Positions 9,804 to 23,985 of a DNA stretch of 25,283 nucleotides are shown here, piece after piece. Origin of the DNA: a virus. Position 1 is the stretch's first letter, and each line of letters opens with the position of its first letter. The stretch lies in the IMG/VR virus record IMGVR_UViG_3300031576_001277, positions 1 to 25,283 of that record; one strand, given 5' to 3'. The notes beneath the pieces were generated by a model, which saw only the letters and a list, made by a program, of their open reading frames with translations, made no database searches and was not told where the DNA came from. The position numbers and the translations under genes were made by a program.

Positions 9804-9822
9804 TTGTTGAGCCGTGCTGAAT

Positions 9823-10161: not shown

Positions 10162-10334
10162 TTGACCGTCTCCTTAACAAAGTGCTGCCACAGAATGAAC
10201 ACTGTCGGGAGACGGTCATCTCGGCGGCAACTTCGTTTTCTGTGGCAGCACTTAGCCATGAATCTAGATTTTGATTGAAGGCAATGTTCCTTAAAAAACA
10301 AACTGCCGCCTTCATGGATGAGATTGACCGTCTC
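10162..10334 (-). ncRNA. E1 structured leader RNA (candidate translational switch)
   Basis: About 173 nt, paralogous to E2. In order: 5' copy GAGACGGTCAA (10334-10324); helix P1 CCATGAA (10317-10311) with TTCATGG (10262-10256); inside it GGCGGC (10310-10305) and hairpin TGTTT-TTTAAG-GAACA; helix P2, 14 bp (10251-10238 with 10195-10182); in the P2 loop GCCGCC (10228-10223) and antisense GACCGTCTCC (10217-10208); then the true site AAGGAGACGGTCAA and ATG. The antisense can pair 9 bp with the 5' copy or 10 bp with the ribosome-binding site. E1 and E2 keep GAAGGCGGC, the TTTAAG loop, CTGCCAC/GTGGCAG, GCCGCC, ACTTTG and GTTAAG, while paired positions change together. Confidence 0.75.
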
Positions 10335-10343
10335 GTTAGATTC

Positions 10344-10372
10344 ATTGTAAGTCTGCTTTCATCAGTTGTCAA
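10344..10372 (-). promoter_or_regulatory. Sigma70-like promoter of E1 cassette
   Basis: Minus strand TTGACA (10372-10367), a 17-nt spacer and TACAAT (10349-10344). It begins just after the chaperone stop codon. The -10 box ends exactly 9 nt before the first GAGACGGTC, as in cassette E2. Confidence 0.75.
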
Positions 10373-10385
10373 GGAGTTGACCAAG

Positions 10386-10667
10386 TTACCAAGTTCCATC
10401 TGCGTTGATCCTTATTCTTTTCTTTACAAGATTTTTCGCGCTTCGATAGCCGCGCTTTATTGCGCCGATCAGGCCTGTTTCTTCGAAACCTGCGAAGGCA
10501 TCCTTGCCGTTGCTCAGGTTATTTTCAACCTGCCGCCCAACAACCAGACACGCCTCGTCTAATTGCCAGGCGGCGAGCTCGGTTTCGAACATAAAGAAAT
10601 CGCTCGGCTTTTTTCCGTAGGCAGTCGCGGAGTTATATAGTCTCCACAGGTTTATTTTGTTCGTCAC
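10386..10667 (-). CDS. Tail assembly chaperone, C-terminal (gpT-like) frame
   Basis: 93 codons from a GTG at 10667, in the +1 frame relative to the upstream gene and overlapping it by 35 nt. The sequence NLWRLYNSATAYGKKPSDFF followed by ETELAAWQLDEACL is the usual signature of gpT-type extensions (W-R, G-K-P-S, A-x-x-L-D). The GTG lacks a ribosome-binding site, so production as a fusion by frameshift is likelier than a separate start; CCC TTT C at 10674-10668, just upstream, is a plausible +1 slip site. A GT fusion would be about 240 aa. Confidence 0.65.
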   Translation of the reverse strand: MTNKINLWRLYNSATAYGKKPSDFFMFETELAAWQLDEACLVVGRQVENNLSNGKDAFAGFEETGLIGAIKRGYRSAKNLVKKRIRINADGTW

Positions 10668-11088
10668 GAAAGGGACGGATGTTTTCCGCCTCCCTGTTCA
10701 CGAAAGAGAAGATCGCCATTTTGTCGTCTGCTGGAATTTCACCCAGCAGGATATGTGCATCGTCTGCCTGCGCGCCGATCATTGGTTCCACCAGGCACAG
10801 CTCCACCAACACATTCAACATCTGGTTGAACTCGCCGGTATTCTTGGCAAGCAATTCCAGATCGAATTCTTTCGCACCTGTTTCTGATGCATCCTTTGCC
10901 AGGCCGATGATCGCATCGGGCAGCTTCCCTGTGAACATCAAATCGGTCATGCTCACATCACGCAGTTTGACATGCAATCCGCTGGGTAATGTCTGCTCAT
11001 GAACGCGGCTGGCTCTCCATTCGGAAAGGTTTTTTTGTGTTGCTTGTTGCGATTGCTTCAACCGATCTAATCCATTATTTTTTGACAT
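10633..11088 (-). CDS. Tail assembly chaperone, N-terminal (gpG-like) frame
   Basis: A 151-aa protein between the major tail and tape measure genes, the usual place of lambda gpG-like chaperones. It is helical and acidic, with LPSGLHVKLRDVSMTDLMFTGKLPD (residues 36-60, shown in part) followed by a helical region. Such proteins coat the tape measure during tail assembly. Its last 12 codons overlap the following frame, which suggests a frameshift extension. GGAG stands close before the ATG. Confidence 0.75.
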   Translation of the reverse strand: MSKNNGLDRLKQSQQATQKNLSEWRASRVHEQTLPSGLHVKLRDVSMTDLMFTGKLPDAIIGLAKDASETGAKEFDLELLAKNTGEFNQMLNVLVELCLVEPMIGAQADDAHILLGEIPADDKMAIFSFVNREAENIRPFRDEQNKPVETI

Positions 11089-11104
11089 GGCTCCTCAAGG
11101 GTTT

Positions 11105-11143
11105 GCTGATGGGCAGTGTAGGAAACACCACTCGCCCATCAGC
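11105..11143 (-). terminator. Strong hairpin after the major tail gene
   Basis: A 10-bp perfect stem GCTGATGGGC (11143-11134) with GCCCATCAGC (11114-11105), with extra partial pairing inside. No T-run follows, so it may slow or partly stop transcription, or protect the upstream message from decay, rather than end it. Confidence 0.5.
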
Positions 11144-11160
11144 CTTTATGAATATCGAAC

Positions 11161-12000
11161 TTATGCGGTCTCGAAATCAATGACCGTATTCGCAAGCGTC
11201 TGACCGAACACGTCGGTGACGCCTGGCACGATCACCAGGTGATCTGTCGCTGCGCCCAAATTGCTCGAAGGGTTCAGCGTGACAACCTTGCGATTCGTTG
11301 AAATCGTGCGCGCCACTGTCACGGGTACACCTGCGGCCGTGGTCAACATGATCCCTTCTTCCTCGCCTGAAGCGAGAGCATTGCTGAAGGTGAGAACAAC
11401 ATCCACACCCACAGCCACGCCAGTTGCACCATCCGCCGGAACGCTCGAAAGCGTGAAGGCGGGCGGAGTACCTGGCAGAGCGGGCAGATCGTCCGCAGTC
11501 TCGTTGGCAACCACATCGTATGCCTTGCCCGAAACTTTCACGCCGGTAAATTCCGTATCCAGCATAAAGAACTCGGCGCGCTTGAACGTGCCTTTCGGCG
11601 ATGATGTGAGCTTTGCCTTGAAGATCTTGATGTGCACATCATCGCCTTCATCGCCCAGCGATTTCCCATAGATCTTGAAATACGGATACGTGGTCGAATC
11701 GCCCTGCAGGGTTGCGACCTGGTTCGGCGTGGAACCAGTCACGGCATAGTCGTGACCCGTCATCAGCGACAAGGCACTGAGCGGGTATCCCCCCTGCTTG
11801 AAGGTGCCTTTGACACCGATCGGCTGGGTCACAATGCCTTGCAGATCGTCGTTGCCGTAAAACTCGCCGGTCACGACCATCTCTTCAAAACCGAGTTCCA
11901 ACGCGGCAGGCAGGCTCACGCGTACGGTCCCTGCCAGGTTCTCGATAATGATTTCTTTCAATCCGAACGGCTTATCGTTTTGTCCAGGTGTTGCAGTCAT
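11161..12000 (-). CDS. Major tail tube protein with C-terminal Ig-like domain
   Basis: A 279-aa protein. Residues 1-175 have the beta-rich look of tail tube proteins (LKEIIIENLAGTVRVSLPA, FKIYGKSLGDEGDDVHIKIF, AEFFMLDTEFTGVKV). Residues about 178-279 form an SbsA/Big_5-type Ig-like domain (SSVPADGATGVAVGVDVVLT, then LTTAAGVPVTVARTIS and VIVPGVTDVFGQTLANTV). Such C-terminal Ig domains decorate the outside of some siphovirus tails and may bind cell-surface sugars. AAGGAG stands 7 nt before the ATG. A strong hairpin follows the stop and may set off this highly needed gene from the next. Confidence 0.75.
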   Translation of the reverse strand: MTATPGQNDKPFGLKEIIIENLAGTVRVSLPAALELGFEEMVVTGEFYGNDDLQGIVTQPIGVKGTFKQGGYPLSALSLMTGHDYAVTGSTPNQVATLQGDSTTYPYFKIYGKSLGDEGDDVHIKIFKAKLTSSPKGTFKRAEFFMLDTEFTGVKVSGKAYDVVANETADDLPALPGTPPAFTLSSVPADGATGVAVGVDVVLTFSNALASGEEEGIMLTTAAGVPVTVARTISTNRKVVTLNPSSNLGAATDHLVIVPGVTDVFGQTLANTVIDFETA

Positions 12001-12025
12001 AACAAATCTCCTTTTTTCTAATTTC

Positions 12026-12108
12026 CGTTCCCCTAAATTCGTGCTTTCCGAATTTAGGGGAAAGCGGCGACATCGTCCCGGTGTTCTTCCGGGAAGCCGA
12101 AGGGGGTC
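12026..12108. repeat. GC-rich intergenic inverted repeat R2 (long)
   Basis: Arms CCCCTAAATTC (12030-12040) and GAATTTAGGGG (12050-12060), then AAAGCGGCGACATCGTC and a second hairpin CCGGTGTTCTTCCGGG, ending in AGCCGAAGGGGGT. It is the longest copy, with an extra stem in the side arm, lying between the tail terminator and the major tail protein genes. Confidence 0.75.
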
Positions 12109-12127
12109 AGGTTGGGTTGCAGTGAAG

Positions 12128-12541
12128 TTACAATTTCCTCACCACATTGAATCTCAACGAACCCAGTGGACAATCTAATGCCTGGTCTCGTTGTTGATAC
12201 ACTCCGCCTACATACTCCATATTCCATATCTGCCCGATCTGTTGTTCGTTGAGATCGGCAAACGCGAACGCCATCGCAGGCTCGATGACGGAATAACCCG
12301 AGCGTTGATAAAAATAAAGCACCGCCGTTGTGCGCACGCTCGTCAAATACGGTCCGGCGGAAACCTCATTCGGGATTTTGATTAACGCGCACGGCTTGAT
12401 CTCCTTCGTGGTTGCATCGAATGCCGATGGCGTATCCTGCCTGTTGATCTCCTCCACGTCGTTATGAATACTGCCGGTCAACAGAGCCACCAATGGAGCG
12501 TCCGCTTGCAACGCTGTTTTGATATCATCACTCAGTGACAT
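12128..12541 (-). CDS. Tail terminator-like protein
   Basis: A 137-aa alpha/beta protein placed between the neck/portal group and the major tail protein. The N-terminal helix (SLSDDIKTALQADAPLVALL) and the later strands TTAVLYFYQRSGYSV and SLRFNVVRKL fit the small tail-terminator or tail-to-head joining proteins (gpU/gp17-like) that cap the tail tube. The start has GGAG 5 nt upstream. There is no unique motif; position and size carry the call. Confidence 0.5.
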   Translation of the reverse strand: MSLSDDIKTALQADAPLVALLTGSIHNDVEEINRQDTPSAFDATTKEIKPCALIKIPNEVSAGPYLTSVRTTAVLYFYQRSGYSVIEPAMAFAFADLNEQQIGQIWNMEYVGGVYQQRDQALDCPLGSLRFNVVRKL

Positions 12542-12552
12542 ACAAACTCCAG

Positions 12553-12587
12553 CCTTCCCCCTTTAGGGGGAACGGGAAGGGGGTCAT
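12553..12587. repeat. GC-rich intergenic inverted repeat R3 (short)
   Basis: Arms CCTTCCCCC and GGGGGAACGG with a short core, followed by GAAGGGGGT. A reduced copy of the family described at 13800, between the gpF-like gene and the tail terminator gene. Confidence 0.65.
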
Positions 12588-12607
12588 CATTCTGCATTCA
12601 TCATTCA

Positions 12608-13780
12608 TCATTTCGTCAACTTCTCCAGATCTTCACTGAAAAGCCACACAGCCAGGTTGATCGCATTCGGCAAAACAGATTTGGACACATCGCCGCCGAG
12701 CATATTTTCATATTGATCTAACTCCGCCCAATCTTGCTCGCCCTTCAACCAGCCGTTCAACTTCGATGTGAATTCCTTTTCAGCCATCAGCACTGCCGTC
12801 TTGTAGCACAGGCAGTTCGGGTGCAACGGCAGTTCAATCGTGCCAACTTCATATACCCCATCCACTTCCTCGCCTCCTCGGGCAACGTCATCGCATTTGT
12901 CTGTTTTCCCATGTGCCGGGCTCAAATTTATCTTCTCCGCCTTCACCCACGGCTGGCTCGCCAAAATCTTATCGGTCGCTAGTGCATGAGCCTTTGAGAT
13001 CTCTGTACGTGAAAGCCTAAGCGCATTGTACGAAACGCCGCTTCCATCACATTCATCGCCGCGTAAGAGGCCCGTAGTATCGCCAGCTGCGATCTCGCTC
13101 TTCGTCCTTCCATACAACCGCGTCGAAGTCCAGCGCGGACAATCTTCATTCGCGCCCAGAAATTGTTCCAGATCCTTGGCGATATTCCACGCCGAATCGC
13201 CGTTCGTGATTCCCTTCAACAGTACGACATTGATTCCATCCTGCGCTTCGCGGTCCACGTTCCAGATCCGCGCTGAGAGATTTAATGAGTCGCCATACAA
13301 ATGCTCACTCGCAGCATTCAAAAGCACCGACAACTGCGGCGAAAAAACACCGTCTTCCACAGATTCAAAAAGGTTTTCTTCGCGCTCTTTGCGCTCTTCG
13401 CGGTTCAAAAGATTTGGCAGTATAAGGCGCTCGTGTGCCACCGCCATCACCCCGAACGGAATGCTCGCCGCCTCCACACGCAATCGCTGAAATTCACTCT
13501 TCCAAATCTCGAACGTCTTCTCCCACATCTCCAGCAACTTGATCTGCACCTGGTAGCCTGTTGCGCCGTCCAACACCTGATCCTTGCCAGCCTTTTTCAA
13601 GATCAATGCTTGCGCCTTCTCGCTGAACTCGCCGAACAACTCATGCGTGCGACCTGTGAAATACAAATGCAAACGCACCACCGCTTTGAATGAAGCCTCG
13701 TACATCCGCGTCAACGGGATTTTCTCCAACTGCGTCAACAACTTCTTTTGCTGGCTCTTTGTTTCAACCATATCAAGCAT
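12608..13780 (-). CDS. Mu gpF-like minor head protein
   Basis: A 390-aa head morphogenesis protein, encoded directly after the portal as usual. The diagnostic C-terminal part reads RLSRTEISKAHALATDKIL, then LSPAHGKTDKCDD (about residues 287-297) and LPLHPNCLCY (317-326), the histidine/cysteine pattern of the Mu gpF family. The N-terminal half is helical. Residues 123-135 (NREERKEREENLF) are encoded by a low-complexity repeat of a genomic type (13377-13410) and look like an in-frame insertion in a linker. The start ATG has GGAG 7 nt upstream. The protein is thought to join portal and capsid and may be injected or processed. Confidence 0.85.
   Translation of the reverse strand: MLDMVETKSQQKKLLTQLEKIPLTRMYEASFKAVVRLHLYFTGRTHELFGEFSEKAQALILKKAGKDQVLDGATGYQVQIKLLEMWEKTFEIWKSEFQRLRVEAASIPFGVMAVAHERLILPNLLNREERKEREENLFESVEDGVFSPQLSVLLNAASEHLYGDSLNLSARIWNVDREAQDGINVVLLKGITNGDSAWNIAKDLEQFLGANEDCPRWTSTRLYGRTKSEIAAGDTTGLLRGDECDGSGVSYNALRLSRTEISKAHALATDKILASQPWVKAEKINLSPAHGKTDKCDDVARGGEEVDGVYEVGTIELPLHPNCLCYKTAVLMAEKEFTSKLNGWLKGEQDWAELDQYENMLGGDVSKSVLPNAINLAVWLFSEDLEKLTK
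13377..13410 (-). repeat. AACCGCGAAGAGCGCAAAG-type repeat inside the gpF-like gene
   Basis: The minus strand reads TTGAACCGCGAAGAGCGC then AAAGAGCGCGAAGAA, two units of a heptad-like A-A-A-G-A-G-C-G-C motif. Similar repeats are common between genes in Chloroflexota and Cyanobacteria (recalled, not searched). Here it is in frame and translated. Confidence 0.5.
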
Positions 13781-13799
13781 TCAAAATCTCCATTACATG

Positions 13800-13856
13800 T
13801 CTTCCCCTAAATTGCGATAGCAATTTGGGGGAAGTGCCCGAAGGGCAAGGGGGTTA
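13800..13856. repeat. GC-rich intergenic inverted repeat R4 (type copy)
   Basis: The clearest copy of a family found nine times in the window. On the plus strand: CTTCCCCTAAATTGC, a 4-nt loop, GCAATTTGGGGGAAG, then the side hairpin TGCCCGAAGGGCA and AAGGGGGT. All but one copy sit between a stop codon and the next ribosome-binding site, and here the portal's TAA starts inside the repeat. The strong stems could form RNA hairpins that adjust mRNA stability, or the family could be a mobilised REP/MITE-like element; no terminal coding or transposase is seen. Confidence 0.8.
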
Positions 13857-15119
13857 GATACTCACGCCTTTCAAATTCTGCGCGAACTGATCCACGCTGA
13901 AACCGTCCATGCTCAAAATATCGTCGTCAACGTTCCGTAGATACATCGCCGCCAGCGCCTGAATAATTTCATCCTTCACACCCAGCAACTTATAACGACT
14001 CAACGCATCAGCCAGATCGCGCAGGTCTGCGGGTGTGAGCGGCTTTGCTGTGCGCCACACGATTTCATAATCCACTGCATCCGGCAGGATGCCCGCCAAC
14101 AACCACTGACGTTCCAACAACGGAGCCACGATCTGTTCGGTCAGCCACTCCCTTCCTTGCGATAACGTCTCTTCATATTCCTCTTTCTTCTCGCCGAGAA
14201 TGTCGCGGTTCAACTCGCCGCCGTAGGCGATCAACTCCATCGGCACGTCGCTCGCGGTCATCATCGTCGCCACGTGATGGTTTACGTCGCCGATCTTGTC
14301 GATATTTCCATCGCCTTGCGTCACAGTCACTGTGCCAGGCTTGTTGGAAAACAGATCGGTCACGGCCGAAATTTTCCCGAACGCAGCCCTGTTGTTTTCT
14401 TTGTAAGCTTCCACATCCGAAGGTGAACCTTCGATGACGTGATGGCGGATCTGCGCGCCACCGATCTTGCGCCGCACAGCCACATTCAACTCGCCGTCCT
14501 GCACGCGCTTGAATGCGGATGTGGAAGCGGAAAACATCGGCGTGCCGTATCTCTGCCCTTCATCGTGATTCCATGGCGCATGGATCATCTGCCATTGTGC
14601 GAACCAGATCGCATCCTTCGGCGCCTCGGGTGTCATCCACGTGTCGCCGCTCATCCAGAATGCCTGTGCAGGGTTCTCGAATTCATCCTGCTTGTTGCTG
14701 TTGCGCCGCACCTGAAGCGTGGGCTTGCGGCTCATCTTCGTGATGTTCAACGCTTCATCCACAACAATTTCATAAAATGAATCGCCGTCGCGCGACGTTT
14801 CGCGCACCGCGTTCTCCAACACCTGGTTGATTCCCAACCGCTTCTGCAACTCAGCCGCGATCTGCTTCGCTTCGAGATTCTTTGTCTTCACGATGAACCC
14901 CGCCCGCACGATGTCGCGTGCATAGAAACGATGCGCCTTCTCCACGCGCGGGTCGGTCGCGTACATCGTGCGGCACGTCTTGATCGTGGCGATGCGCTCA
15001 CGGTCCGCCTTCAACTTTTCATACTCCGCGGTCACCGATTCAACTCCTCCGCCTCGTTCGGTCGTGACCGCGCTTGGCGGATTGAAAAACGCGTTGATTC
15101 TCTGCATCAAGGTTGCCAT
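13854..15119 (-). CDS. Portal protein
   Basis: A 421-aa portal protein, the dodecameric channel at the head vertex. Recognisable parts are the helical N-terminus, the wing with YATDPRVEKAHRFYARDIVR (residues 53-72), SRDGDSFYEIVVDEA, the core motif NHDEGQRYGTPMF with AFKRVQDGELNVAVRRK, and the C-terminal crown region DLADALSRYKLLGVKDEIIQALA. It is slightly shorter than many portals but complete. Its position is odd: it follows the capsid and neck genes instead of the terminase. It is paired with the Mu gpF-like gene, as is usual, so the two have moved or stayed together as a unit. Confidence 0.85.
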   Translation of the reverse strand: MATLMQRINAFFNPPSAVTTERGGGVESVTAEYEKLKADRERIATIKTCRTMYATDPRVEKAHRFYARDIVRAGFIVKTKNLEAKQIAAELQKRLGINQVLENAVRETSRDGDSFYEIVVDEALNITKMSRKPTLQVRRNSNKQDEFENPAQAFWMSGDTWMTPEAPKDAIWFAQWQMIHAPWNHDEGQRYGTPMFSASTSAFKRVQDGELNVAVRRKIGGAQIRHHVIEGSPSDVEAYKENNRAAFGKISAVTDLFSNKPGTVTVTQGDGNIDKIGDVNHHVATMMTASDVPMELIAYGGELNRDILGEKKEEYEETLSQGREWLTEQIVAPLLERQWLLAGILPDAVDYEIVWRTAKPLTPADLRDLADALSRYKLLGVKDEIIQALAAMYLRNVDDDILSMDGFSVDQFAQNLKGVSI

Positions 15120-15122
15120 AAT

Positions 15123-15560
15123 TTACCCTTTGAAAACATCCTGTACCATGCGTTCCAGCTTCGGAAGGTTCCGTTCCAGCGTGCTCATAATGATGGCGAA
15201 TCTTCCGCCATTCGATAATTCCAAAAACTTTCCATAAAAAACAGTATGTCCCAGTGTGATGATCAGCGTGTTCGCGTCGCCGCTTTCCACAGTCACGTCG
15301 CTCATCTCCGCTTTCGCTTCGGGTTTCACGTCGCCCGTCAGCGGACTCAGTCCGAATCCATCCACCGCGAAGAAGATGCCGCCGCGGGCGTTGCCCGTTC
15401 GGTCTTCCCAGGGCACTTCCTGTCTCGCTTCATCCTGGTTGGACTGTCCCCAGTAATTCGCAACGGCTTGAATGGCGATCAATGCTTTCTGACCGTAATC
15501 TTCCAAACCATCGGCGATCACCTTCGGCGAAACAACCCATTGAAAACCGCTGGCGTTCAT
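15123..15560 (-). CDS. HK97 gp10-like tail completion protein
   Basis: A 145-aa protein of the gp10-like family: N-terminal helix with the long central helix (GQKALIAIQAVANYWGQSNQDEA), the element W-E-D-R-T-G-N-A-R-G-G (residues 51-61), and near the end HTVFYGKFLELSNGGRFAII followed by a helix (LERNLPKLERMVQ). The pairing of DRTGNAR with YGKFLEL is the hallmark of the family, which closes the neck or tops the tail. It is translationally coupled to the stopper gene and followed within 4 nt by the portal start. Confidence 0.85.
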   Translation of the reverse strand: MNASGFQWVVSPKVIADGLEDYGQKALIAIQAVANYWGQSNQDEARQEVPWEDRTGNARGGIFFAVDGFGLSPLTGDVKPEAKAEMSDVTVESGDANTLIITLGHTVFYGKFLELSNGGRFAIIMSTLERNLPKLERMVQDVFKG

Positions 15561-15868: not shown

Positions 15869-15880
15869 AATTCTCCAATT

Positions 15881-16558: not shown

Positions 16559-16580
16559 TTCAGTTGAAAAATTTTTTTCT

Positions 16581-16634
16581 AATTCCCCTTCCCCCGATTT
16601 GGGGGAAGGGGTTAGGGGTTGGGGGTGGCTCTTA
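16581..16634. repeat. GC-rich intergenic inverted repeat R6
   Basis: Arms CCCCTTCCCCC and GGGGGAAGGGG around a 5-nt core, followed by TTAGGGGTTGGGGGTGG. It lies between the capsid gene stop and the start of the connector gene; the capsid TAA is in its edge. Confidence 0.75.
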
Positions 16635-19310
16635 CGCCTGCGTCAACACATACGCCGCCTTGCCGCCGATTGGGGCGAGCGAAGCGTTGTACTCTTCGGC
16701 ATAGTATTGCTCAGCCGCCACGAGCTTGCCGTTGCTGTAGGTCGGGAAGGGACCCTTGACCGTCATCGGCTGAAACACGCGGTGCATCACGATCTCGCGG
16801 TTCATCACCAGGAACCACGTGTCGCGCATCTGGGTGGTTGCGAAGACGGGCAGTCCCTTCACGATCATGTTGGCGAAACCAGCCGCGCTCAACAACGCGT
16901 TCGGGAACCCGTCGCGTTGGAAGCCTGTCCAGTTGCTCAGGCGTTCGGCGTTCGTCACACTGCACAAAATGGATGTGGGCTGGTAATAGCGGTTGGCAAC
17001 CTTCACCGAAGCCACGCCGAGTTTCTTCACCAGGTCGGTGTAATCAGCATCGCTGATGTCCCATGTGCCGCCCGAGTTCGAAGCCACAGCCAAAGCCGCG
17101 GCAAGCGCCTTTTCGATCAAGGTCTTGTCAATGTCCAGTCGGATCTGGCGGATCAGGTTCGCCATCGTGCGCGTGACGGCATCCCAACCGAGTTGCGAGC
17201 GGCTGAACACGATCGCCTCGTGCGAGATGTAATCAGCCAGTCGCATTGCGCTCGCTTCGATGGTCTGACTGCTGAGCGACACCTTGGCGCGCTCGATCTC
17301 GGTGTTCTCACCTTTGCGTGTGGCGTGATAGGTGTAGGTCACAAGCACGTCATTCGCTCCAACGGCACCAGCGGCAAGGTGCTTGATCTTGCCATATTCG
17401 TAATCAATCACGAAGTCGGTGCCTTCCACATACGTGGTGCCTGCGGGGTTGCTGGTGACGACCACCGTGCCAGGCACGATGTTCTTGTTCGCCAGGTCAT
17501 ACCATACTTCTTCCGCACCGCTTGTTTCCAATTCATCGACCACGTCCACACTGTAGCCAGTCTCGCCAGTGAAGGCTTCGTAGAAGATTTTGGTCGGGGT
17601 TTGCTCCATGATGCCCATGTCAAAGACATTCGCGGCAACCAGGTTGGCAATGACCTCTGGAATAATCGTGCGGCTCACAGAATACGGCAGGTTGAGGTCT
17701 GTCGTCAATTCCGCTTCTTCAAACCTTTGCGATTCGTAGTAGAGACCTGCGGGTTGACCACGTTCATCAACTGTCTTGAAATACTTCTTGTCAAAGCATT
17801 CCAATACTAGCATCGCGAACATAGCACCGCGGTCCTGCCGCTTGCGAAGATCGATTTCAGAACGCATTTCGCTCTTGCGCAGCGATTCACTGATCTCGAA
17901 GGATGCACGCGCAAATTCGGGCGTACCCGTTTCAGTCTCCAGCACATTGCCGATTATCTTCACGCTCTTCCTGGATTCGTCCCAGCCCATGCCAACGAGC
18001 AATTTCTTTGAAGCCAGCTTGCCATATTCTTTGTATTTGCTCTCGGTAAATTTCTTCACCGCTTCGGGCGTGGTGAGTTCAGCTTCATTGAGCGAATCAA
18101 CAAAAGCCGCGTTCAATTCCTTACCAAACGGAAGATCCTTGGTGGCTTCTTTGATCGCATTCTTGACCTCAGCCTGCTTCTGGCTCTCTTTGAAAGCCTT
18201 GGCGTCGCGCAGGGTCTCATCCAGCGCCTTGGCAAGATCGGCATTGGTATCAATGCCGAGTTTCGTGCGGATCGATTCCTCGATCTTCTTCAATTGCGCC
18301 TCGCTCATTTCCACAAGCTGGGTTTCGGTGAATCCTTTGCCGAACAGTTCAGGGTGTTCAGCCAGTAATTTTTTCAGTTCCTCTAACATTTCGTCATCTC
18401 CTTGTGAGTGATTTGATTCTTGTAATTCCGCCGCATTCTTGAACGACGGATCGCCAACCAGGTCAGCGCCGGTCATCGAGATCCAAAGCATCCTCTCAAC
18501 TTTCTCCCCCTTGACCTTTTCGATTTTGGATTCCCCTATACCTCTAACACTGCCGCCTGGGTTTACGCCAGCCTCCATCAGGATCTCAACATCTTTTCCC
18601 TTGCTGGTTAGGATGAGATCGCCCTCGATATCGAGCCGCTCACCGTTCCAGTCCAGTGTGTCCCACCGCACTACTGTTTCAAGGTACTCCGTCTGTTTCT
18701 TGCCTTTGGTGATTGGATGTTCAACTTCACCGGTCAGTATTTTCAAACGTCCCTGACCCGCTGATTCGTGAAGATGCGATCGCCAATCAGCGACCAGCGC
18801 TTCAATGACAGCGGATTCATAAAGACGGTTGTTTCCATTGACTACATTTGCCACCATGAATCCATTGATTCGAATTCGACGTGTGCCTTTCGATTCATCC
18901 TTCGCCTCAAGCAGTCTCACATGGCTCGGGGCGATCGCTTCCTCGAATCGCTTCCCACTCTTCTTCTTGCTCTCAGTCACTACCGTCTGCGGTTGATACG
19001 TGAGCTCTACAATCTCCCACTGATCACGTGCCGCAAACACATATTCGCGCTGAGCGGAGCCGTCAGGCGCAGACGAAGCGTCTGCCTTCGAATAAGTGAC
19101 CTTGTAATACTCGTCGGTCTTCAACGGGCTGGAAGAACCATATTCAGTAACGATCACATGATCGTCGAAGATCTCAGCGATATAACAGTTAAGACCATCC
19201 TCTTGATAAGGAAACAATGCGCGAAAAGCCTGGTTGATCAGGCTCATCGTATATTCCATGCTTCCCTTCACCAGCTCCTCGATTACTTTACCTTTTCCAA
19301 TTTTCTTCAT
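16632..19310 (-). CDS. Fused prohead protease, scaffold and major capsid protein
   Basis: An 892-aa protein joining parts that are usually separate. Residues 1-105 are a distinct N-terminal domain (AFRALFPYQEDGLNCYIAEI). Residues 145-293 resemble T4 gp21-like maturation proteases: NGNNRLYESAVIEAL, GEVEHP (H198), PGGSVRG (S254, likely nucleophile) and GADLVGDPSF. Residues 308-455 are a charged helical scaffold (MLEELKKLLAEHPELFGKG). From about 470 the major capsid protein follows (LNLPYSVSRTIIPEVIANLV, DIDKTLIEKALAAAL, LPVFATTQM), with a beta-rich insertion near 610-665 (AGTTYVEGTDFVIDY). Codon 308 is an ATG with AAGGAG 8 nt upstream, so a 585-aa scaffold-capsid product may be made separately. 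The protease would cut itself and the scaffold away during head maturation. Confidence 0.85.
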   Translation of the reverse strand: MKKIGKGKVIEELVKGSMEYTMSLINQAFRALFPYQEDGLNCYIAEIFDDHVIVTEYGSSSPLKTDEYYKVTYSKADASSAPDGSAQREYVFAARDQWEIVELTYQPQTVVTESKKKSGKRFEEAIAPSHVRLLEAKDESKGTRRIRINGFMVANVVNGNNRLYESAVIEALVADWRSHLHESAGQGRLKILTGEVEHPITKGKKQTEYLETVVRWDTLDWNGERLDIEGDLILTSKGKDVEILMEAGVNPGGSVRGIGESKIEKVKGEKVERMLWISMTGADLVGDPSFKNAAELQESNHSQGDDEMLEELKKLLAEHPELFGKGFTETQLVEMSEAQLKKIEESIRTKLGIDTNADLAKALDETLRDAKAFKESQKQAEVKNAIKEATKDLPFGKELNAAFVDSLNEAELTTPEAVKKFTESKYKEYGKLASKKLLVGMGWDESRKSVKIIGNVLETETGTPEFARASFEISESLRKSEMRSEIDLRKRQDRGAMFAMLVLECFDKKYFKTVDERGQPAGLYYESQRFEEAELTTDLNLPYSVSRTIIPEVIANLVAANVFDMGIMEQTPTKIFYEAFTGETGYSVDVVDELETSGAEEVWYDLANKNIVPGTVVVTSNPAGTTYVEGTDFVIDYEYGKIKHLAAGAVGANDVLVTYTYHATRKGENTEIERAKVSLSSQTIEASAMRLADYISHEAIVFSRSQLGWDAVTRTMANLIRQIRLDIDKTLIEKALAAALAVASNSGGTWDISDADYTDLVKKLGVASVKVANRYYQPTSILCSVTNAERLSNWTGFQRDGFPNALLSAAGFANMIVKGLPVFATTQMRDTWFLVMNREIVMHRVFQPMTVKGPFPTYSNGKLVAAEQYYAEEYNASLAPIGGKAAYVLTQA
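18387..18403 (-). promoter_or_regulatory. Internal ribosome-binding site and ATG in the fused capsid gene
   Basis: AAGGAG followed by ATGACGAA and then ATG at 18389, in frame within the 892-aa gene. The site lies exactly at the join between the protease end (after DPSFKNAAELQ) and the scaffold start (MLEELKKLL). It is as good as the sites used by neighbouring genes, so it would yield a 585-aa scaffold plus capsid product. Confidence 0.65.
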
Positions 19311-19331
19311 CGTTTATCTCCTCAAACAATC

Positions 19332-20939
19332 TCAACCATCAAACATTCCAACTTGCAAACCTTCAAACAGCGACTCGGCAGTAACAACAATTGCTTCACT
19401 GCTCGCGGTCTTCTGGTCGCCGCCATCCTCGGCGATCATTCCCACACCACCACTCACGCTATCCACATCATCGTCATGGCGTCCCTTCGGAAACGAAGTT
19501 GCCTCGCGAATAAAATCCAAGTTCCACGGACCACGCACCAGCTTCACGTATCCCTGCTTCGCGCGCAATGCCCAGGGACGTGCCCGCGACACTTTATCTT
19601 TATCGACAATAATCGCCTGTATCCTTACTTTGACAAGTTGCTTGTCCTTCAAAAAAGCCTTTACTACCAATTTTTGAAAGGCATTGCTCTCGATGCCCCA
19701 TTCAGTGTTCAACTCAGCATCCGAAAGCATCGCAGTTTTTGCCAACGGTAGGAAGGCTTCAAGTTTGTGTTCCTTGATTCGATCCCGCAAAATCAAATTA
19801 CCTTCCGTGTCCAATGCAACCGCAAGGGAAGAATTCCAATCGCTTGTTTGTGTCTCACCCAAAGCCAGGTCGCAATACCGAAACCACTGCAACCCTTCAG
19901 GCGCTTTCTCGATGATCCCAAAATCCTTATCGTCGAAGAACTCACCGTCTGCCATGCGCGGCAGTTGCTGGAAGATCGCTTCGAAGTCGAAATCCAGCAT
20001 GTTCGCCCGCGTCGTTGCCAGCTTCTTCGCATCCGATCGTTCAGGCCACAATGGTTCCCCTGGCTTTCGACCAAGCACGTCGCCGTTCATCGGGATATAA
20101 ATTCCGCGCAATAAATTCTCGCGATACTCTTCCTCGGTCTTTGGATATTTATCTTCATCCAAAGCGAGCGCAGGCAGGAAGACAACATCAAACTGATCGG
20201 CTTCAGTGTCGCTGATCATCAGAGTCAATAACTGCCCTGCCAGGTCTTCCTGGTCCCAGCGTGTGTGCATGATGATGATCGCCGCACCTGGCGTATTCGC
20301 CACACGGGGATACACTACGGATCGGTACCAGCTCATCACTTTGCTTCGATACGTTGTGCTCTCTGCATCTTCACGGCTCTTGAACGGGTCGTCGATCACG
20401 ATCAGGTGGGCAGGTCGCCCTGTGATACCGCCTCCGATACCAGCCGCAAAAACGGACCCGCGGTGACCCTTCAAATTCCACGAAACAACCGAACGGCTCT
20501 CAGGGCTCAACTCGACCGGCTCATCCACTGCGGAGCGCTGTCCAAAGATATTGGCATATGCATCGCTTCCAACGTAATTCCGCATGATGCGGCTGTTCTC
20601 AGTTGCCAGGTCCGCGCCATAGGATGTAAGAATGATTCGCGAGTCGGGCAGGTCTCCCAACAGCCACGATGGAAACAGGCGGCTTGCCTGTTCGGTCTTT
20701 CCGTATTGCGCTGGTTCGCAGATCAACAGGCGGCCGATCCCCTCAGCCCCTTTTGTTTCGATAAATCGCTTCACCTGTTCAAGTTTTTCAGCCAGGTAAA
20801 TATGATGCTTCGCGGGCTTATACCAGGGCGCCACATACATGCTGTAATCAATCAAATGACGACGCGCCAGCTCACGCTTTGCCATCTCGGCGCGTGCCAT
20901 CTTGGGTGTCACACGTGCTCGCACTGCTGAAGAAGACAT
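19332..20939 (-). CDS. terL: Terminase large subunit
   Basis: A 535-aa packaging motor. The ATPase half carries a deviant Walker A (ICEPAQYGKTEQAS, lysine 81), Walker B HLIVIDDPF (D183, D184) and the coupling motif MHTRWDQEDLAGQLL (224-238). The nuclease half shows acidic metal ligands in YCDLALGE (D357), GIESNAF (E417) and HDDDVDSVSGG (489-499), the RNase H-like arrangement of terminase nucleases. Length is usual for the family. It cuts concatemeric DNA and pumps it into the prohead through the portal. It follows terS closely, and the fused protease-capsid gene follows after about 20 nt, without the portal gene usually found here. Confidence 0.93.
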   Translation of the reverse strand: MSSSAVRARVTPKMARAEMAKRELARRHLIDYSMYVAPWYKPAKHHIYLAEKLEQVKRFIETKGAEGIGRLLICEPAQYGKTEQASRLFPSWLLGDLPDSRIILTSYGADLATENSRIMRNYVGSDAYANIFGQRSAVDEPVELSPESRSVVSWNLKGHRGSVFAAGIGGGITGRPAHLIVIDDPFKSREDAESTTYRSKVMSWYRSVVYPRVANTPGAAIIIMHTRWDQEDLAGQLLTLMISDTEADQFDVVFLPALALDEDKYPKTEEEYRENLLRGIYIPMNGDVLGRKPGEPLWPERSDAKKLATTRANMLDFDFEAIFQQLPRMADGEFFDDKDFGIIEKAPEGLQWFRYCDLALGETQTSDWNSSLAVALDTEGNLILRDRIKEHKLEAFLPLAKTAMLSDAELNTEWGIESNAFQKLVVKAFLKDKQLVKVRIQAIIVDKDKVSRARPWALRAKQGYVKLVRGPWNLDFIREATSFPKGRHDDDVDSVSGGVGMIAEDGGDQKTASSEAIVVTAESLFEGLQVGMFDG

Positions 20940-20946
20940 TATTCTT

Positions 20947-21693
20947 TCACGCCTCTTCTTCTTCCCCTAAATCGGATGCTTCTCCCGATTTGGAGGAAGT
21001 GCCCGATAGGGCGATGGGCGTCGTGTTGCGTCGTTCCAACTCATTGCTGGCAGATGATGCGATCTCCCTCAGCTCGTCGTCGCTCAAGTCGCTTTCGCCA
21101 ATGCTCCCTTTGCTGAGCTTCTTGGCGATCTCAGCCGTGATCTTCGATGACGGTGTGTAGATGCCTCCCATCTCGAACATCAACTTGCGGTCTGCATGAC
21201 CCTTGTAATCCGCTTCGGTGGCTACCTCCACCATCGCATTTAACGCATCCGGCAGCGCATCGAAAATGATCGAACCCTGTAGCATCGAGATCATCTCATC
21301 GATCGCCGGGTTCTTCTTCCTCCAGGTCGCGATCGCGCGGTCAGAATTTAACGCCAGGCATTTTGTTGCCAGCTCTTCCTGCGTATCAGGCCAGCGATAC
21401 TTTTTCGGTTGACTTGCCCAGGCGATATACACTGCCACACGCCACTTCCATCCCCCTTCCATCAGTCGTTTGAATAAGTCCATCCAACGCGGAATAATTT
21501 CGCGTTCACCCATCGCGATCTTTTTTCCATCTTCGCCGTGGATGAAGTTTTGCTCTTTTACCCGTAATGCAGAGAGAGCCGCAAGCGCGGCTTCGCTCGA
21601 AAGCTTCTCCTCGTTCTGCGGAATCGCTTCCTCGATGCCAACCAATTCCATTGGCAATTGATAAACAGGCTTGTCCAATCGTCCGTTAGTCAT
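20947..21693 (-). CDS. terS: Terminase small subunit (phBC6A51-like)
   Basis: A 248-aa protein directly before the large terminase. Residues about 80-135 contain WKWRVAVYIAWASQPKKYRW, then TQEELATKCLALNSDRAI and TWRKKNPAID, a helix-turn-helix layout typical of the phBC6A51 type of small terminase, which recognises phage DNA and loads the motor. A second helical region (SKITAEIAKKLSKG) would serve oligomerisation. The last 30 residues are low in complexity (SGTSSKSGEASDLGEEEEA) and are encoded by a copy of the GC-rich repeat family (R7), so the C-terminus is a recent extension over an intergenic repeat. Eight bases separate it from the terL ATG. Confidence 0.7.
   Translation of the reverse strand: MTNGRLDKPVYQLPMELVGIEEAIPQNEEKLSSEAALAALSALRVKEQNFIHGEDGKKIAMGEREIIPRWMDLFKRLMEGGWKWRVAVYIAWASQPKKYRWPDTQEELATKCLALNSDRAIATWRKKNPAIDEMISMLQGSIIFDALPDALNAMVEVATEADYKGHADRKLMFEMGGIYTPSSKITAEIAKKLSKGSIGESDLSDDELREIASSASNELERRNTTPIALSGTSSKSGEASDLGEEEEA
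20958..21020. repeat. GC-rich inverted repeat R7, inside coding sequence
   Basis: The plus strand shows CTTCCCCTAAATCGG, a short loop, CCCGATTTGGAGGAAG and then TGCCCGATAGGGC, the same order as copies R4 and R5. Here the repeat is translated as the C-terminus of the small terminase rather than lying after its stop codon, and its G-run is interrupted. Confidence 0.7.
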
Positions 21694-21708
21694 TATTCTC
21701 TTTCTGTA

Positions 21709-22071
21709 TTAAGGCGTCTTTCCGAACACCAGGTACAGCAACCCAATGACGACGAGTGTGATAATTTGCGGAAGGACTTTATCCCGCAGGTACGTCCAGA
21801 AATCAAAACGTTTTTCCAGCACCGCCTTGATCTTCTGCGTTGTCGTCAACAGATCAGTCTCGCGCTTTTCTTCCCGTTCTTCCCTTTTCCTGCGCACTTC
21901 CCTCAACTCACCTTTGAAGTCGTTCAGGTCAATACGGAAATCAATTTCATTTTTCCGTATACTTGAAATTTCACCGCGCGTATACCGTAGCATGTCGAAG
22001 ATGGTCGCTAATTGATCGGCTAATGGCATCTTTACGAATGATTGTTTCTCTTGGTCAGATATTTCGATCAT
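21709..22071 (-). CDS. Coiled-coil protein with C-terminal membrane anchor (XhlA-like)
   Basis: A 120-aa protein. Residues about 20-85 form a charged coiled coil (many E, K and R; REVRRKREEREEKRE) and residues about 98-117 form one membrane segment (VLPQIITLVVIGLLYLVFG). This layout, a helical N-terminus plus a C-terminal hydrophobic anchor at 80-120 aa, is that of XhlA-like phage proteins found in lysis cassettes. Similarity rests on architecture, not on a conserved motif. It is the last gene before the terminase pair; the next ATG follows after 15 nt. Confidence 0.5.
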   Translation of the reverse strand: MIEISDQEKQSFVKMPLADQLATIFDMLRYTRGEISSIRKNEIDFRIDLNDFKGELREVRRKREEREEKRETDLLTTTQKIKAVLEKRFDFWTYLRDKVLPQIITLVVIGLLYLVFGKTP

Positions 22072-22160
22072 CCCAACACCAAATTTCCATACAGGCGAAT
22101 ACGGATCGTACCGACATGATCTTTCTTGCGGGCATTCAACAACGAGATCAATTCGTCCAC
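22068..22160 (-). CDS. Possible 30-aa small protein
   Basis: The gap between the 89-aa and 120-aa genes holds a frame with good coding character (DELISLLNARKKDHVGTIRI) that ends in a TGA overlapping the next ATG as ATGA, the coupling used elsewhere here. The best start is GTG at 22160, but no clear ribosome-binding site precedes it. In-frame coding continues upstream to a TAA without an ordinary start codon, so the true start is uncertain. Confidence 0.3.
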   Translation of the reverse strand: MDELISLLNARKKDHVGTIRIRLYGNLVLG

Positions 22161-22179
22161 GTTTTGTTCGGCTAACGGT

Positions 22180-22449
22180 TTAGATTACCTGCTTTGGGGC
22201 GGGCGTGGATTCGCTTTCAGATGCCGCAGATTCCCCAAAGTCAGGTGCATCTTTTGTTAGCCAACCATCATCGGTAGGCTGTTGTGTTTGCTGATAAGAC
22301 CATTCAAGCAATTCTATGCAAGTTGAATTATTCAAACGCTTTCCAGTTTGCGAAATGAAATCGGCGGCAAGTTCATCGAGCATTTTATGTAACTCAACAT
22401 GACGAGCCTTGTGATCCATTTCGCTTATTTTTTCAGTGTGTTTTACCAT
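22180..22449 (-). CDS. Hypothetical 89-aa helical protein
   Basis: An 89-aa protein without membrane segments. Residues 1-55 are helical and charged (SEMDHKARHVELHKMLDEL, IELLEWSYQQTQQ), and the tail is acidic and low in complexity (GESAASESESTPAPKQ). The ATG overlaps the end of the upstream gene. No family is recognised; position between membrane-protein genes suggests a small accessory gene of the lysis group, which is inference only. Confidence 0.55.
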   Translation of the reverse strand: MVKHTEKISEMDHKARHVELHKMLDELAADFISQTGKRLNNSTCIELLEWSYQQTQQPTDDGWLTKDAPDFGESAASESESTPAPKQVI

Positions 22450-22649
22450 TTCAATCCTTTCGTTTGCAAGCGGTTGGCTAACTCGATATCGATCACGGTC
22501 ACGCGCTCGGTTTCCAGATAAGTCAAGGCGGGAAGTTCCTTCGCCACGCGCGATACATACAATATGATCGGTCTTGATTCCTGTTGTTTGCGCGGTTGTT
22601 TCACCGGTTCACTCCGGGCGGACGCCTGGCACTCACACCAAGCATCCAC
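22443..22649 (-). CDS. Hypothetical 68-aa protein
   Basis: The start is a GTG 8 nt after the stop of the holin-like gene. The protein begins with VDAWCECQASARSEP, has a basic stretch (KQPRKQQ), and continues with IILYVSRVAKELPALTYLE and IDIELANRLQTKGLKW. No family is recognised. The end overlaps the start of the next gene by seven bases, which supports translation as part of the same operon. The two cysteines close to the N-terminus (CEC) are the only notable residues. Confidence 0.55.
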   Translation of the reverse strand: MDAWCECQASARSEPVKQPRKQQESRPIILYVSRVAKELPALTYLETERVTVIDIELANRLQTKGLKW

Positions 22650-22657
22650 CCAATCAC

Positions 22658-23050
22658 TTATTTCTTCGCGGGTTGAAATCCCTTGATAGTTCCGTGTACG
22701 CCGAACGCACCAAGTATTGTCACCAGCAAAGTAAGGGCTACTGCAACCGATGCCTGTGCAGGCTCCGGAACCGCTGAAAGCAAGGCATTGAAAAACAGGA
22801 CCACCGCGCTTGTAATGGATGCGGCAATCATCGCCGCCCAGCCTGTCAGGTCTTTGCCGAGTTTCGAAGAGACCGACTTCAAGCCTGCGGTAACAACGAA
22901 GATCACAACCAGCGAGATTATTCCTTCAAAGTCAACCGGCAATGTCAGATCTCCTGCAGGGGGTTCCTCGCCCTGGGCAAAGACTGGCGTCACAGTGAGC
23001 GCAAGCATTGCCAGCAAAAGGAACAGAAAAAAAATACGTTTGGTCTTCAT
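22658..23050 (-). CDS. Holin-like membrane protein with signal peptide
   Basis: A 130-aa protein. Residues 1-25 form a classic signal peptide (MKTKR, a leucine/phenylalanine core, then PVFAQ with a likely cut after VFA). A short acidic, proline-rich segment follows, then three hydrophobic segments near residues 43-62, 72-95 and 100-122 and a basic tail (FQPAKK). Small size, several membrane segments and a charged C-terminus fit a phage holin, but a cleaved signal peptide is unusual for one. The ribosome-binding site AAAGGAG stands before the ATG. The gene leads the putative lysis group upstream of the terminase; no endolysin is recognisable nearby, so the lysis role is inference. Confidence 0.6.
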   Translation of the reverse strand: MKTKRIFFLFLLLAMLALTVTPVFAQGEEPPAGDLTLPVDFEGIISLVVIFVVTAGLKSVSSKLGKDLTGWAAMIAASITSAVVLFFNALLSAVPEPAQASVAVALTLLVTILGAFGVHGTIKGFQPAKK

Positions 23051-23067
23051 ACAATCATCTCCTTTGA

Positions 23068-23130
23068 ATGTCTTCCCCCAAATCGTGATCGCCTATTTGG
23101 GGGAAAGCGGCGAAGCCGAAGGGGGTGGAT
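23068..23130. repeat. GC-rich intergenic inverted repeat R8
   Basis: Member of the family described at 13800. It shows the arms CTTCCCCCAAAT and ATTTGGGGGAAAG and the side hairpin GCGGCGAAGCCGAAGGGGGT. It lies between the P2 leader and the ribosome-binding site of the 130-aa gene. Confidence 0.7.
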
Positions 23131-23215
23131 TAAACGGAAAGCGCCCGATGTCAAGTGACATCGGGCGCTAACTCCGATAAGTTGCCCGTTACCAGAACGG
23201 GCGTGCTAAATTTGC
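23130..23215 (-). ncRNA. Structured leader or small RNA downstream of P2
   Basis: From the predicted P2 start (about 23215) the RNA would contain hairpin GCCCGTTctggtAACGGGC (23202-23184) and then a perfect 14-bp stem (23169-23156 with 23153-23140) with a 2-nt spacer, followed by TTTCCGTTT. If the second stem terminates, the product is an 85-nt small RNA; if it is read through, this is a 165-nt leader of the 130-aa gene. Its long perfect stem could also be a processing site. I do not recognise the family. Confidence 0.5.
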
Positions 23216-23221
23216 CCCCAA

Positions 23222-23250
23222 ATCTTAAACCCAAATTCCTCCCGCGTCAA
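23222..23250 (-). promoter_or_regulatory. Sigma70-like promoter P2
   Basis: Minus strand TTGACG (23250-23245), a 17-nt spacer and TAAGAT (23227-23222), placed immediately after terminator T1. It is the natural promoter for the holin-like gene and the late genes that follow. Confidence 0.65.
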
Positions 23251-23255
23251 GAGTC

Positions 23256-23304
23256 TAAAAATGCAAACACCGCGGCCTGAGGGGGGCAGGTCACGGCGTT
23301 TGCA
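23256..23304 (-). terminator. Intrinsic terminator T1
   Basis: An 11-bp stem with one G-U pair, TGCAAACGCCG (23304-23294) with CGGTGTTTGCA (23272-23262), an extra inner CCTG/CAGG pairing, and TTTTT directly after. It sits just downstream of P1 and would also end the E2 cassette transcript. Confidence 0.85.
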
Positions 23305-23310
23305 ATGGTG

Positions 23311-23338
23311 ATTATAGAATGTTTTCAGGATTTGTCAA
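23311..23338 (-). promoter_or_regulatory. Consensus sigma70-like promoter P1
   Basis: Minus strand TTGACA (23338-23333), a 16-nt spacer and TATAAT (23316-23311). Both hexamers are perfect consensus. The predicted start, near 23304, falls on the first base of terminator T1, so by default P1 would give only an RNA of about 50 nt. Confidence 0.75.
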
Positions 23339-23401
23339 TTAGCCACTCCCAGCATTCATCAGTCCCGCGTATTTCTACACGGGACCAAAATAAGCTAATT
23401 G
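23336..23401 (-). promoter_or_regulatory. Nested inverted repeats overlapping -35 of P1
   Basis: An outer inverted repeat CAATTAGC (23401-23394) and GCTAATTG (23343-23336) encloses a 10-bp hairpin with a GAAA loop (23385-23376 with 23371-23362). The outer right arm overlaps the TTGACA box of promoter P1 by three bases, so it could be an operator, or the inner hairpin could end transcripts of the 102-aa gene. There is no T-run after the inner hairpin. Confidence 0.45.
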
Positions 23402-23436
23402 CCTGTTCTTTACTTCTCTTTCGCATGATCAACGTT

Positions 23437-23745
23437 CTACCCGATCTCCCACTTTATTTCTTTCGTTGCATCTCCTACCGCTTCCGTTGTCATCTGGTTG
23501 TTGAACCATGAAACCAACCCATCGTGTTCACGCATATAGATTTGCGCTTGCATGATCAATATTATCAATTCCACCAGATGGTGCACATGCTTGTTGTTCG
23601 GTAACTCCTCTTCGATCCTCCTGTGCAATCTCAGCGCCAGCATCCTCAAAAAAACATCATCGAACATCGGCTTGTGGATAGGATCGAGCCACGTCCCCTC
23701 TTTATCTGAAACAACTACTTTTCGTTCATCAATTTTTGTATTCAT
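23437..23745 (-). CDS. Unknown 102-aa protein of E2 cassette
   Basis: The start chosen is the ATG at 23745, directly after the conserved AAAGG site at the end of leader E2; an in-frame ATG 19 codons upstream lies inside the leader structure and is unlikely. The protein is soluble, helical and charged, with N-terminal MNTKIDERKVVVSDKEG, then PMFDDVFLRMLALRLHRRI, a histidine-rich helix (NNKHVHHLVELI) and WFNNQMTTEAVGDATKEI near the end. No signal peptide, membrane segment or known motif is visible. It is the only gene between its own promoter and terminator T1, so it looks like a separately controlled accessory (moron) gene. The amber-interrupted frame of cassette E1 has PMF and WNN at nearly the same positions, a hint of common origin. 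Confidence 0.7.
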   Translation of the reverse strand: MNTKIDERKVVVSDKEGTWLDPIHKPMFDDVFLRMLALRLHRRIEEELPNNKHVHHLVELIILIMQAQIYMREHDGLVSWFNNQMTTEAVGDATKEIKWEIG

Positions 23746-23925
23746 TTGACGGGTGCCTTTCTTAACGCAAAGTCCTGCCACAGACTGACATCCTCCGGGC
23801 ACCCGTCAAGGCGGCGGCGACTCACTTTCCGTGGCAGGATTTTACCTGTGAATATAGGGGGTTGTTATTCGGAAGGCTGTCACTTAAATGACAAAGCCGC
23901 CTTCACAATTGCCTTTGACGGGTGC
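23746..23925 (-). ncRNA. E2 structured leader RNA (candidate translational switch)
   Basis: About 180 nt of 5' UTR ahead of the 102-aa gene, paralogous to E1 at 10162-10334. In order on the minus strand: a 5' copy of the ribosome-binding region (GCACCCGTCAAA, 23925-23914); helix P1 (23908-23902 with 23852-23846); inside it GGCGGC (23901-23896) and a hairpin TGTCA-TTTAAG-TGACA (23893-23878); helix P2, 12 bp (23839-23828 with 23784-23773); within the P2 loop GCCGCC (about 23818-23810), able to pair with GGCGGC, and the antisense TTGACGGGTGCC (23809-23798); last the true site GGCACCCGTCAA (23757-23746) and ATG. The antisense can pair 11 bp with the 5' copy or 12 bp with the ribosome-binding site. 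Relative to E1, helix changes are compensatory. No known riboswitch class was recognised. Confidence 0.75.
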
Positions 23926-23963: not shown

Positions 23964-23985
23964 CCCGAACGTGCGTTCTAATTTG

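What the first reader, a model, noticed from the sequence alone, without database searches (positions are those of the whole stretch)
10162..23925. Two paralogous structured leaders (E1, E2) of an unrecognised RNA class
Leaders at 10162-10334 and 23746-23925 (minus strand), 13.5 kb apart and before different genes, share one architecture: 5' RBS-like copy, helix P1 enclosing a TTTAAG-loop hairpin, GGCGGC, long helix P2 whose loop holds GCCGCC and an anti-RBS, then the RBS and ATG. The helices covary: P1 CCATGAA/TTCATGG against TTGTGAA/TTCACAG; small hairpin TGTTT/GAACA against TGTCA/TGACA; and in P2 a G-C pair becomes C-G. Loops and joining segments (TTTAAG, GAAGGCGGC, GCCGCC, ACTTTG, GTTAAG) stay fixed. 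Compensatory change with fixed unpaired bases is what a conserved cis-acting RNA shows. I do not recognise it as a known riboswitch or phage motif.
Basis: partly seen in the sequence, partly recalled or inferred. Interest (0 to 1): 0.9.

Follow-up and report, generated by a model that had tools for sequence, protein, structure and literature searches.

The report
Phage moron leader with three-strand switch
Two small accessory genes in this phage are each preceded by a folded RNA leader of a family not in Rfam, in which one strand can pair either with the RNA's own 5' end or with the ribosome-binding site; all three strands change together between copies, so it looks like an on/off switch for translation.

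Summary
Both leaders exist, and five further copies were found in five other IMG/VR phage contigs. A 5'-terminal strand A, an internal strand A' and the RBS strand A'' change together: A pairs with A' over 13-14 bp in all seven copies, and A' pairs with A'' over 11-12 bp in all six full copies. The two pairings exclude each other. P1 and P2 also covary, including a copy (L024) whose P2 sequence is almost wholly different. A lies 0-3 nt from the predicted TSS in all seven copies. In every full copy the leader sits inside a complete transcription unit: promoter, leader, small ORF of one divergent family, intrinsic terminator. At the tail chaperone/tape-measure junction two phages carry the unit and five relatives have an empty site. 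It is therefore a phage moron with a structured leader. No match in Rfam or named phages. Most likely it is a cis-acting translational switch resembling the tac/ucb/dcb exchange of hok mRNA, but without that family's 3' fold-back element, antisense promoter or hydrophobic toxin. The trigger and the product's function are unknown.

The parts
10367..10372 (-). E1 promoter -35 TTGACA
   Evidence: TTGACA-17-TACAAT, 11 of 12
10344..10349 (-). E1 promoter -10 TACAAT
10325..10334 (-). E1 strand A (GAGACGGTCA; inner TCTC follows to 10320), about 3 nt from the predicted TSS
10311..10317 (-). E1 P1 5' strand CCATGAA
10305..10310 (-). E1 C, GGCGGC (invariant)
10256..10262 (-). E1 P1 3' strand TTCATGG
10239..10251 (-). 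E1 P2 5' strand
10223..10228 (-). E1 C', GCCGCC, in the P2 loop
10209..10222 (-). E1 A' (GAGATGACCGTCTC), pairs with A or with A''
10182..10194 (-). E1 P2 3' strand
10163..10172 (-). E1 A'' (GAGACGGTCA), overlaps the Shine-Dalgarno GGAG and its spacer
9823..10161 (-). E1 small ORF; homologous to the L018 and L011 proteins over its length but interrupted by two in-frame TAG codons
   Evidence: E 8.6e-15 against L018 with TAG read through
9759..9806 (-). E1 unit: intrinsic terminator (CAGACGTTC...GAACGTCTG TTTTGTTTT)
23967..23978 (-). LexA-type box GAACGCACGTTC upstream of the E2 promoter (also at L010, L018 and L056)
23935..23963 (-). E2 promoter TTGTTT-17-TAGAAT
   Evidence: sequence; same layout in L010 and L018; the scan tool's threshold does not report it
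23916..23925 (-). E2 strand A (GCACCCGTCA)
23902..23908 (-). E2 P1 5' strand TTGTGAA
23896..23901 (-). E2 C, GGCGGC
23846..23852 (-). E2 P1 3' strand TTCACAG
23828..23840 (-). E2 P2 5' strand
23810..23815 (-). E2 C', GCCGCC
23799..23809 (-). E2 A' (TTGACGGGTGC)
23772..23784 (-). E2 P2 3' strand
23747..23756 (-). E2 A'' (GCACCCGTCA), ends next to the ATG
23437..23745 (-). E2 small ORF, 102 aa
23261..23306 (-). E2 unit: intrinsic terminator

Best explanation
Each leader is a cis-acting translational switch on a phage moron (an independent promoter-to-terminator unit placed between late genes). The transcript begins at A. One internal strand, A', has two exclusive partners. With A at the 5' end (13-14 bp, extended by GGCGGC/GCCGCC) it leaves the Shine-Dalgarno and start codon free: ON. 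With A'' (11-12 bp, covering the Shine-Dalgarno GG and the spacer to the ATG) it closes them: OFF. P2 holds A' in its loop in either state. P1 with its conserved TTTAAG and GGCGGC probably decides which partner wins. SHOWN by sequence: the strands, their co-change, the promoter spacing, the terminators and the empty sites. INFERRED: that the two pairings set translation, that A:A' forms first and is the default, and that the P1 domain or the state of the 5' end is the input. The different A sequences of E1 and E2 make the two switches of one phage unable to cross-pair.
For: A:A': 91 of 91 cells standard over seven copies, every one of 13 positions changed on both sides in some copy; A'':A': 60 of 60 over six copies, 6 of 10 positions double-changed; P2: 7 of 13; P1: 2 of 7. 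Own-partner duplexes are -24 to -30 (A:A') and -21 to -25 kcal/mol (A'':A'); E1 against E2 type only -4 to -10; among permutations of partners only 2/5040 and 4/720 (the true one and swaps of identical strands among them) do as well. Shuffle and slide controls. L020, not used in the model, scores E 9e-15. A begins 7-10 nt after the -10 hexamer in all seven. A'' always reaches the ATG, and A' ends in CC that can match the Shine-Dalgarno GG but not A. Terminators close all six full units. Two carriers have a 600-644 nt insertion where five relatives have none. No other 9-mer copy of A or A' lies in the window.
Against: No expression, probing or ligand data. Seven copies only, in groups of close relatives, so independent changes are fewer than cells. 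C:C' does not vary, hence is untested. The pseudoknotted states cannot be scored by the folding programs used; nested energies of the alternative states mostly lie within a few kcal/mol of each other (L024 favours P1+P2 by far), so the default state is not decided. E1's gene has two in-frame TAGs while its leader is intact, which is odd if the leader serves only that gene.
Confidence: 0.72

Rival explanations
1. Ligand- or protein-sensing riboswitch: the conserved P1/TTTAAG/GGCGGC domain binds a metabolite, a host factor or the moron product, and the A/A'/A'' exchange is its expression platform.
For: TGAAGGCGGC, TTTAAG and ATTCA are constant in all copies while the helices around them change, as expected of an aptamer core.
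Against: No candidate ligand; the same core stands before one gene family only, which has no known function; few copies.
Confidence: 0.3
2. Kinetic timer or 5'-integrity gate: A:A' forms during transcription and permits translation; later refolding, or loss of the 5' end by decay, lets A' close the RBS. No ligand is needed.
For: A is the first strand made and lies at the predicted TSS in all seven copies. Transient open structures of this kind are described for the MS2 5' UTR and metastable structures for hok and aapA mRNAs (PMC6733600).
Against: A:A' is at least as stable as A':A'', so spontaneous refolding would be slow; no processing data.
Confidence: 0.3
3. Type I toxin-antitoxin unit of the hok kind, with a toxin mRNA kept silent by folding and an antisense RNA.
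For: The A / A' / A'' exchange has the form of tac / ucb / dcb in hok mRNA (own knowledge; coupled covariations are the title finding of Gultyaev et al. 1997, reference list of PMC6733600).
Against: No significant anti-A element between ATG and terminator and no consistent antisense promoter; the product is about 100 aa and not a small hydrophobic peptide.
Confidence: 0.07
4. Nascent-RNA antitermination element (put-like) at the 5' end of a transcript, acting on RNA polymerase rather than on the ribosome.
For: Two copies in this phage, each at the predicted 5' end of a transcript; strong structure.
Against: All six full units end in a strong terminator shortly after the small ORF; A' covers the RBS exactly and is fitted to the ATG, which antitermination would not need.
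Confidence: 0.06
5. DNA-level feature: A and A'' are target-site duplications of an inserted element, or repeated operators.
For: A and A'' are direct repeats flanking about 150 bp.
Against: A keeps a nearly fixed distance to the -10 hexamer and A'' to the ATG in every copy; A' changes with them; P1 and P2 show compensatory change. The real insertion is the whole promoter-to-terminator unit.
Confidence: 0.03

Closest known systems
hok mRNA family (tac / ucb / dcb strand exchange)
   Same: 5'-terminal strand and RBS strand are alternative partners of one internal strand; three-way coupled covariation; control of translation (own knowledge of hok).
   Different: No 3' fold-back element or antisense promoter detected, no small hydrophobic toxin, no Rfam match; P2 hub and a conserved P1/TTTAAG domain not known from hok; different genomic setting.
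aapA type I toxin mRNAs of Helicobacter (PMC6733600)
   Same: Successive alternative anti-Shine-Dalgarno pairings decide translation, supported by covariation.
   Different: There the anti-SD strands are several and the final OFF state is a 5'-3' end interaction; here one anti-SD strand has two partners inside the leader.
Translational riboswitches with pseudoknots
   Same: Conserved unpaired core plus an expression platform that could free or hide the RBS.
   Different: No ligand known; found before one phage gene family only; the competing strand is the 5' end itself.
Phage morons (HK97 gp15, JBD26 Tab; PMC10884400)
   Same: Independent unit, present or absent in relatives, between late genes; here at the tail chaperone/tape measure junction and by the lysis genes.
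   Different: I know of no moron with a conserved structured leader of this kind (own knowledge, not an exhaustive search).

Membership tests
Rfam 15 families | Match at gathering score | tested here: not met
   none at gathering; chance-level hits only with the permissive threshold
Phage moron | Own promoter upstream of the gene | tested here: met
   sigma-70-like promoter with 17-nt spacer in all seven copies
Phage moron | Own terminator after the gene | tested here: met
   strong hairpin plus T-run in all six full copies
Phage moron | Present/absent polymorphism between related phages | tested here: met
   600-644 nt insertion in two phages, about 0 to -52 nt gap in five relatives
Phage moron | Expressed from the prophage, not needed for growth | not testable with these tools
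   no host or expression data
hok/Sok type I toxin-antitoxin | 5' strand and RBS strand both complementary to one internal strand, covarying | tested here: met
hok/Sok type I toxin-antitoxin | 3' fold-back element complementary to the 5' strand | tested here: not met
   best anti-A in the ORF/3' region no better than shuffles, fraction 0.11-0.87
hok/Sok type I toxin-antitoxin | Antisense RNA gene over the leader | tested here: not met
   no consistent antisense promoter by consensus scan
hok/Sok type I toxin-antitoxin | Small hydrophobic toxin | tested here: not met
   products of about 100-124 aa, charged, no family match
Riboswitch | Conserved unpaired core flanked by covarying helices | tested here: met
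Riboswitch | Direct binding of a small ligand | not testable with these tools
   needs binding experiments

The most novel reading that the evidence does not exclude
A new RNA class: moron leaders that use their own 5' terminus as the ON strand, with a private 'address' sequence per locus so that several copies in one phage do not cross-regulate, and with a sensing domain (P1/TTTAAG/GGCGGC) that couples moron translation to an unknown host or phage signal.
Probability: 0.35. Interest if true: 0.8.

Novelty: new variant of a known kind. Interest (0 to 1): 0.63.

Why it matters
Morons are thought of as simple promoter-gene-terminator cassettes. A conserved switch in front of them would add a layer of RNA control to genes that prophages use in their hosts. 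The three-strand covariation gives unusually clear, directly testable predictions from sequence alone, and the private strand of each locus suggests selection against cross-talk between copies in one genome.

Tried and rejected
Upstream ORF: the 3' half can be read as an ORF with CxFCGxTL in E1, L011 and L018, but it is broken in E2, L010 and L024, so it is not conserved. Read-through gating by upstream sequence pairing with A: no excess complementarity. Further A or A' copies in the window or transcript: none. TAG reassignment: TAG ends 6 of 24 window genes, so it is not recoded genome-wide. Scan of about 1 Mb of fetched DNA for the A...A'...A''-ATG pattern: outside the family only an operator-like GGTTCAT array and a match inside a coding gene. 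Genome-contig hits of the pattern were inspected and none has the 3' half; one Morganella hit at E 2e-4 (L036; short calibration, rough E-values) lacks the architecture on inspection. BLAST in named phages and plasmids: nothing real. Close relatives by terminase: 30 contigs, no copy. Protein family search by alignment could not run for lack of a conserved stretch; with the L018 protein only L018 itself was found. Structure prediction of the product was of low confidence (pLDDT 53) and was not used.

Full report
WHAT WAS CHECKED. The window is a 25.3-kb viral contig (IMG/VR record) of a tailed phage: terminase, capsid/protease, major tail protein, tail chaperone and tape measure were recognised, all on the minus strand. 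Their similarity begins in the 5' strand A and ends at the ATG; the flanks differ. Both fold better than shuffled sequence. Rfam has no match.

MORE COPIES. Pattern scans of viral contigs found L010, L011, L018, L020 (5' part only) and L024; wider scans found no more. A covariance model from six copies finds each in its full contig, one per contig besides the window's two, and recovers L020, which was not in the model, at E 8.9e-15. Thirty phages with related terminases have none; nor has the nearest named phage, Virus Rctr41k. Genome contigs gave only unrelated matches.

ANATOMY. In order: sigma-70-like promoter with a 17-nt spacer; A, starting 7-10 nt after the -10 hexamer; P1 5' strand; GGCGGC (C); a hairpin or loop holding TTTAAG; P1 3' strand; P2 5' strand; GCCGCC (C') joined to A'; P2 3' strand; ACTTTG and a short linker; A'' (Shine-Dalgarno and spacer); ATG. 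A:A' with C:C' makes one long helix that crosses P1 and P2. A':A'' also crosses P2. So both candidate states are pseudoknotted.

COVARIATION. Four different A sequences occur among seven copies, and each comes with its own A' and, where the copy is complete, its own A''. A:A' has 91/91 standard pairs with double-sided changes at all 13 positions counted; A'':A' has 60/60; P2 has 75/78 with 7 double-sided positions, mostly because L024 carries another P2; P1 has 49/49 with two (hand alignment). On an automatic alignment the structure A:A' + C:C' + P1 + P2 has 15 double-changed pairs against 8.3 in shuffles (0/500) and at most 5 in slid controls; A':A'' exceeds its controls on cells paired and covariation score, though MAFFT misaligns A'' in two copies. 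Swapping partners between copies destroys the pairing unless they share an A type. Cells count sequences, not events; E2, L010 and L018 are relatives, as are E1 and L011. C:C' is constant and gives no evidence either way.

SURROUNDINGS. Every full copy lies in a complete unit that ends in an intrinsic terminator. The unit holds one small ORF of a divergent family without database matches (L024's membership is weak), in L018 followed by an HNH endonuclease and in E2 by what looks like a remnant of one. Units of the E1 type (E1, L011, L020) lie after the tail chaperone and, where the contig shows it, before the tape measure gene; five relatives have no insertion there. Units of the E2 type (E2, L010, L018) lie by the lysis genes and share a GAAC-N4-GTTC box, the LexA motif of Gram-positive bacteria (PMC3323433), upstream of the -35; relative L056 has the box in the same place but another gene behind it. 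This is the make-up of a moron. Morons within late operons, such as Tab, act in phage defence (PMC10884400); whether this one does is unknown.

HOW IT PROBABLY WORKS. A' ends in CC that can match the Shine-Dalgarno GG in A'' but not A, so pairing with A'' is fitted to hiding the RBS. Pairing with A is slightly longer and can form first because A is made first and A' before A''. The simplest reading is: default ON through A:A', OFF through A':A'' when A is unavailable. What makes A unavailable (ligand or protein at the P1 domain, time, loss of the 5' end) is open. The nearest parallel is the exchange of tac, ucb and dcb in hok mRNA, from own knowledge and the title of Gultyaev et al. 1997 as cited in PMC6733600. 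Three defining features of that family were tested and not met (and product properties), so it works like it but is not filed as a member.

ODDITY. E1's ORF is homologous to the family along its length but has two in-frame TAG codons; TAG is an ordinary stop in this phage. The leader is intact. Either the gene died recently, or the codons are suppressed, or the RNA has a role of its own.

Noticed in passing
window 9823-10161 (-): E1 small ORF has two in-frame TAG codons in an otherwise homologous frame, while TAG ends 6 of 24 other genes.
   Followed up: partly
window 23967-23978; L010, L018, L056 at the same place: GAAC-N4-GTTC box (Gram-positive LexA motif), the only one in the window, upstream of the E2-type promoter; in L056 it lies between -35 and -10 of a promoter for a different gene.
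   Followed up: partly
window 23338-23311 (-): Perfect consensus promoter (TTGACA-16-TATAAT) that reads straight into the E2 unit's terminator hairpin at 23306-23261; it would make an RNA of about 50 nt.
   Followed up: no
window 23426-23325 (-); L095 after the small ORF: HNH endonuclease after the small ORF in L018; truncated remnant after E2.
   Followed up: partly
L010, inside the small ORF: In-frame insertion of a segment that looks like a bacterial intergenic repeat (CACTTCGACAGGCTCAGTACAAGCC).
   Followed up: no
window 12552-12576, 16586-16610, 20977-21001, 24595-24619: Palindromic CCCTTCCCCC...GGGGGAAGGG repeats between late genes, REP-like or terminators.
   Followed up: no
L100, near 14382 (-): Array of GGTTCAT / ATGAACC repeats upstream of a short ORF, operator- or iteron-like.
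   Followed up: no
E1, L011, L018 leaders, 3' half: The P2 3' strand can be read as CxFCGxTL, a zinc-knuckle-like stretch, but the frame is not conserved in the other copies.
   Followed up: yes
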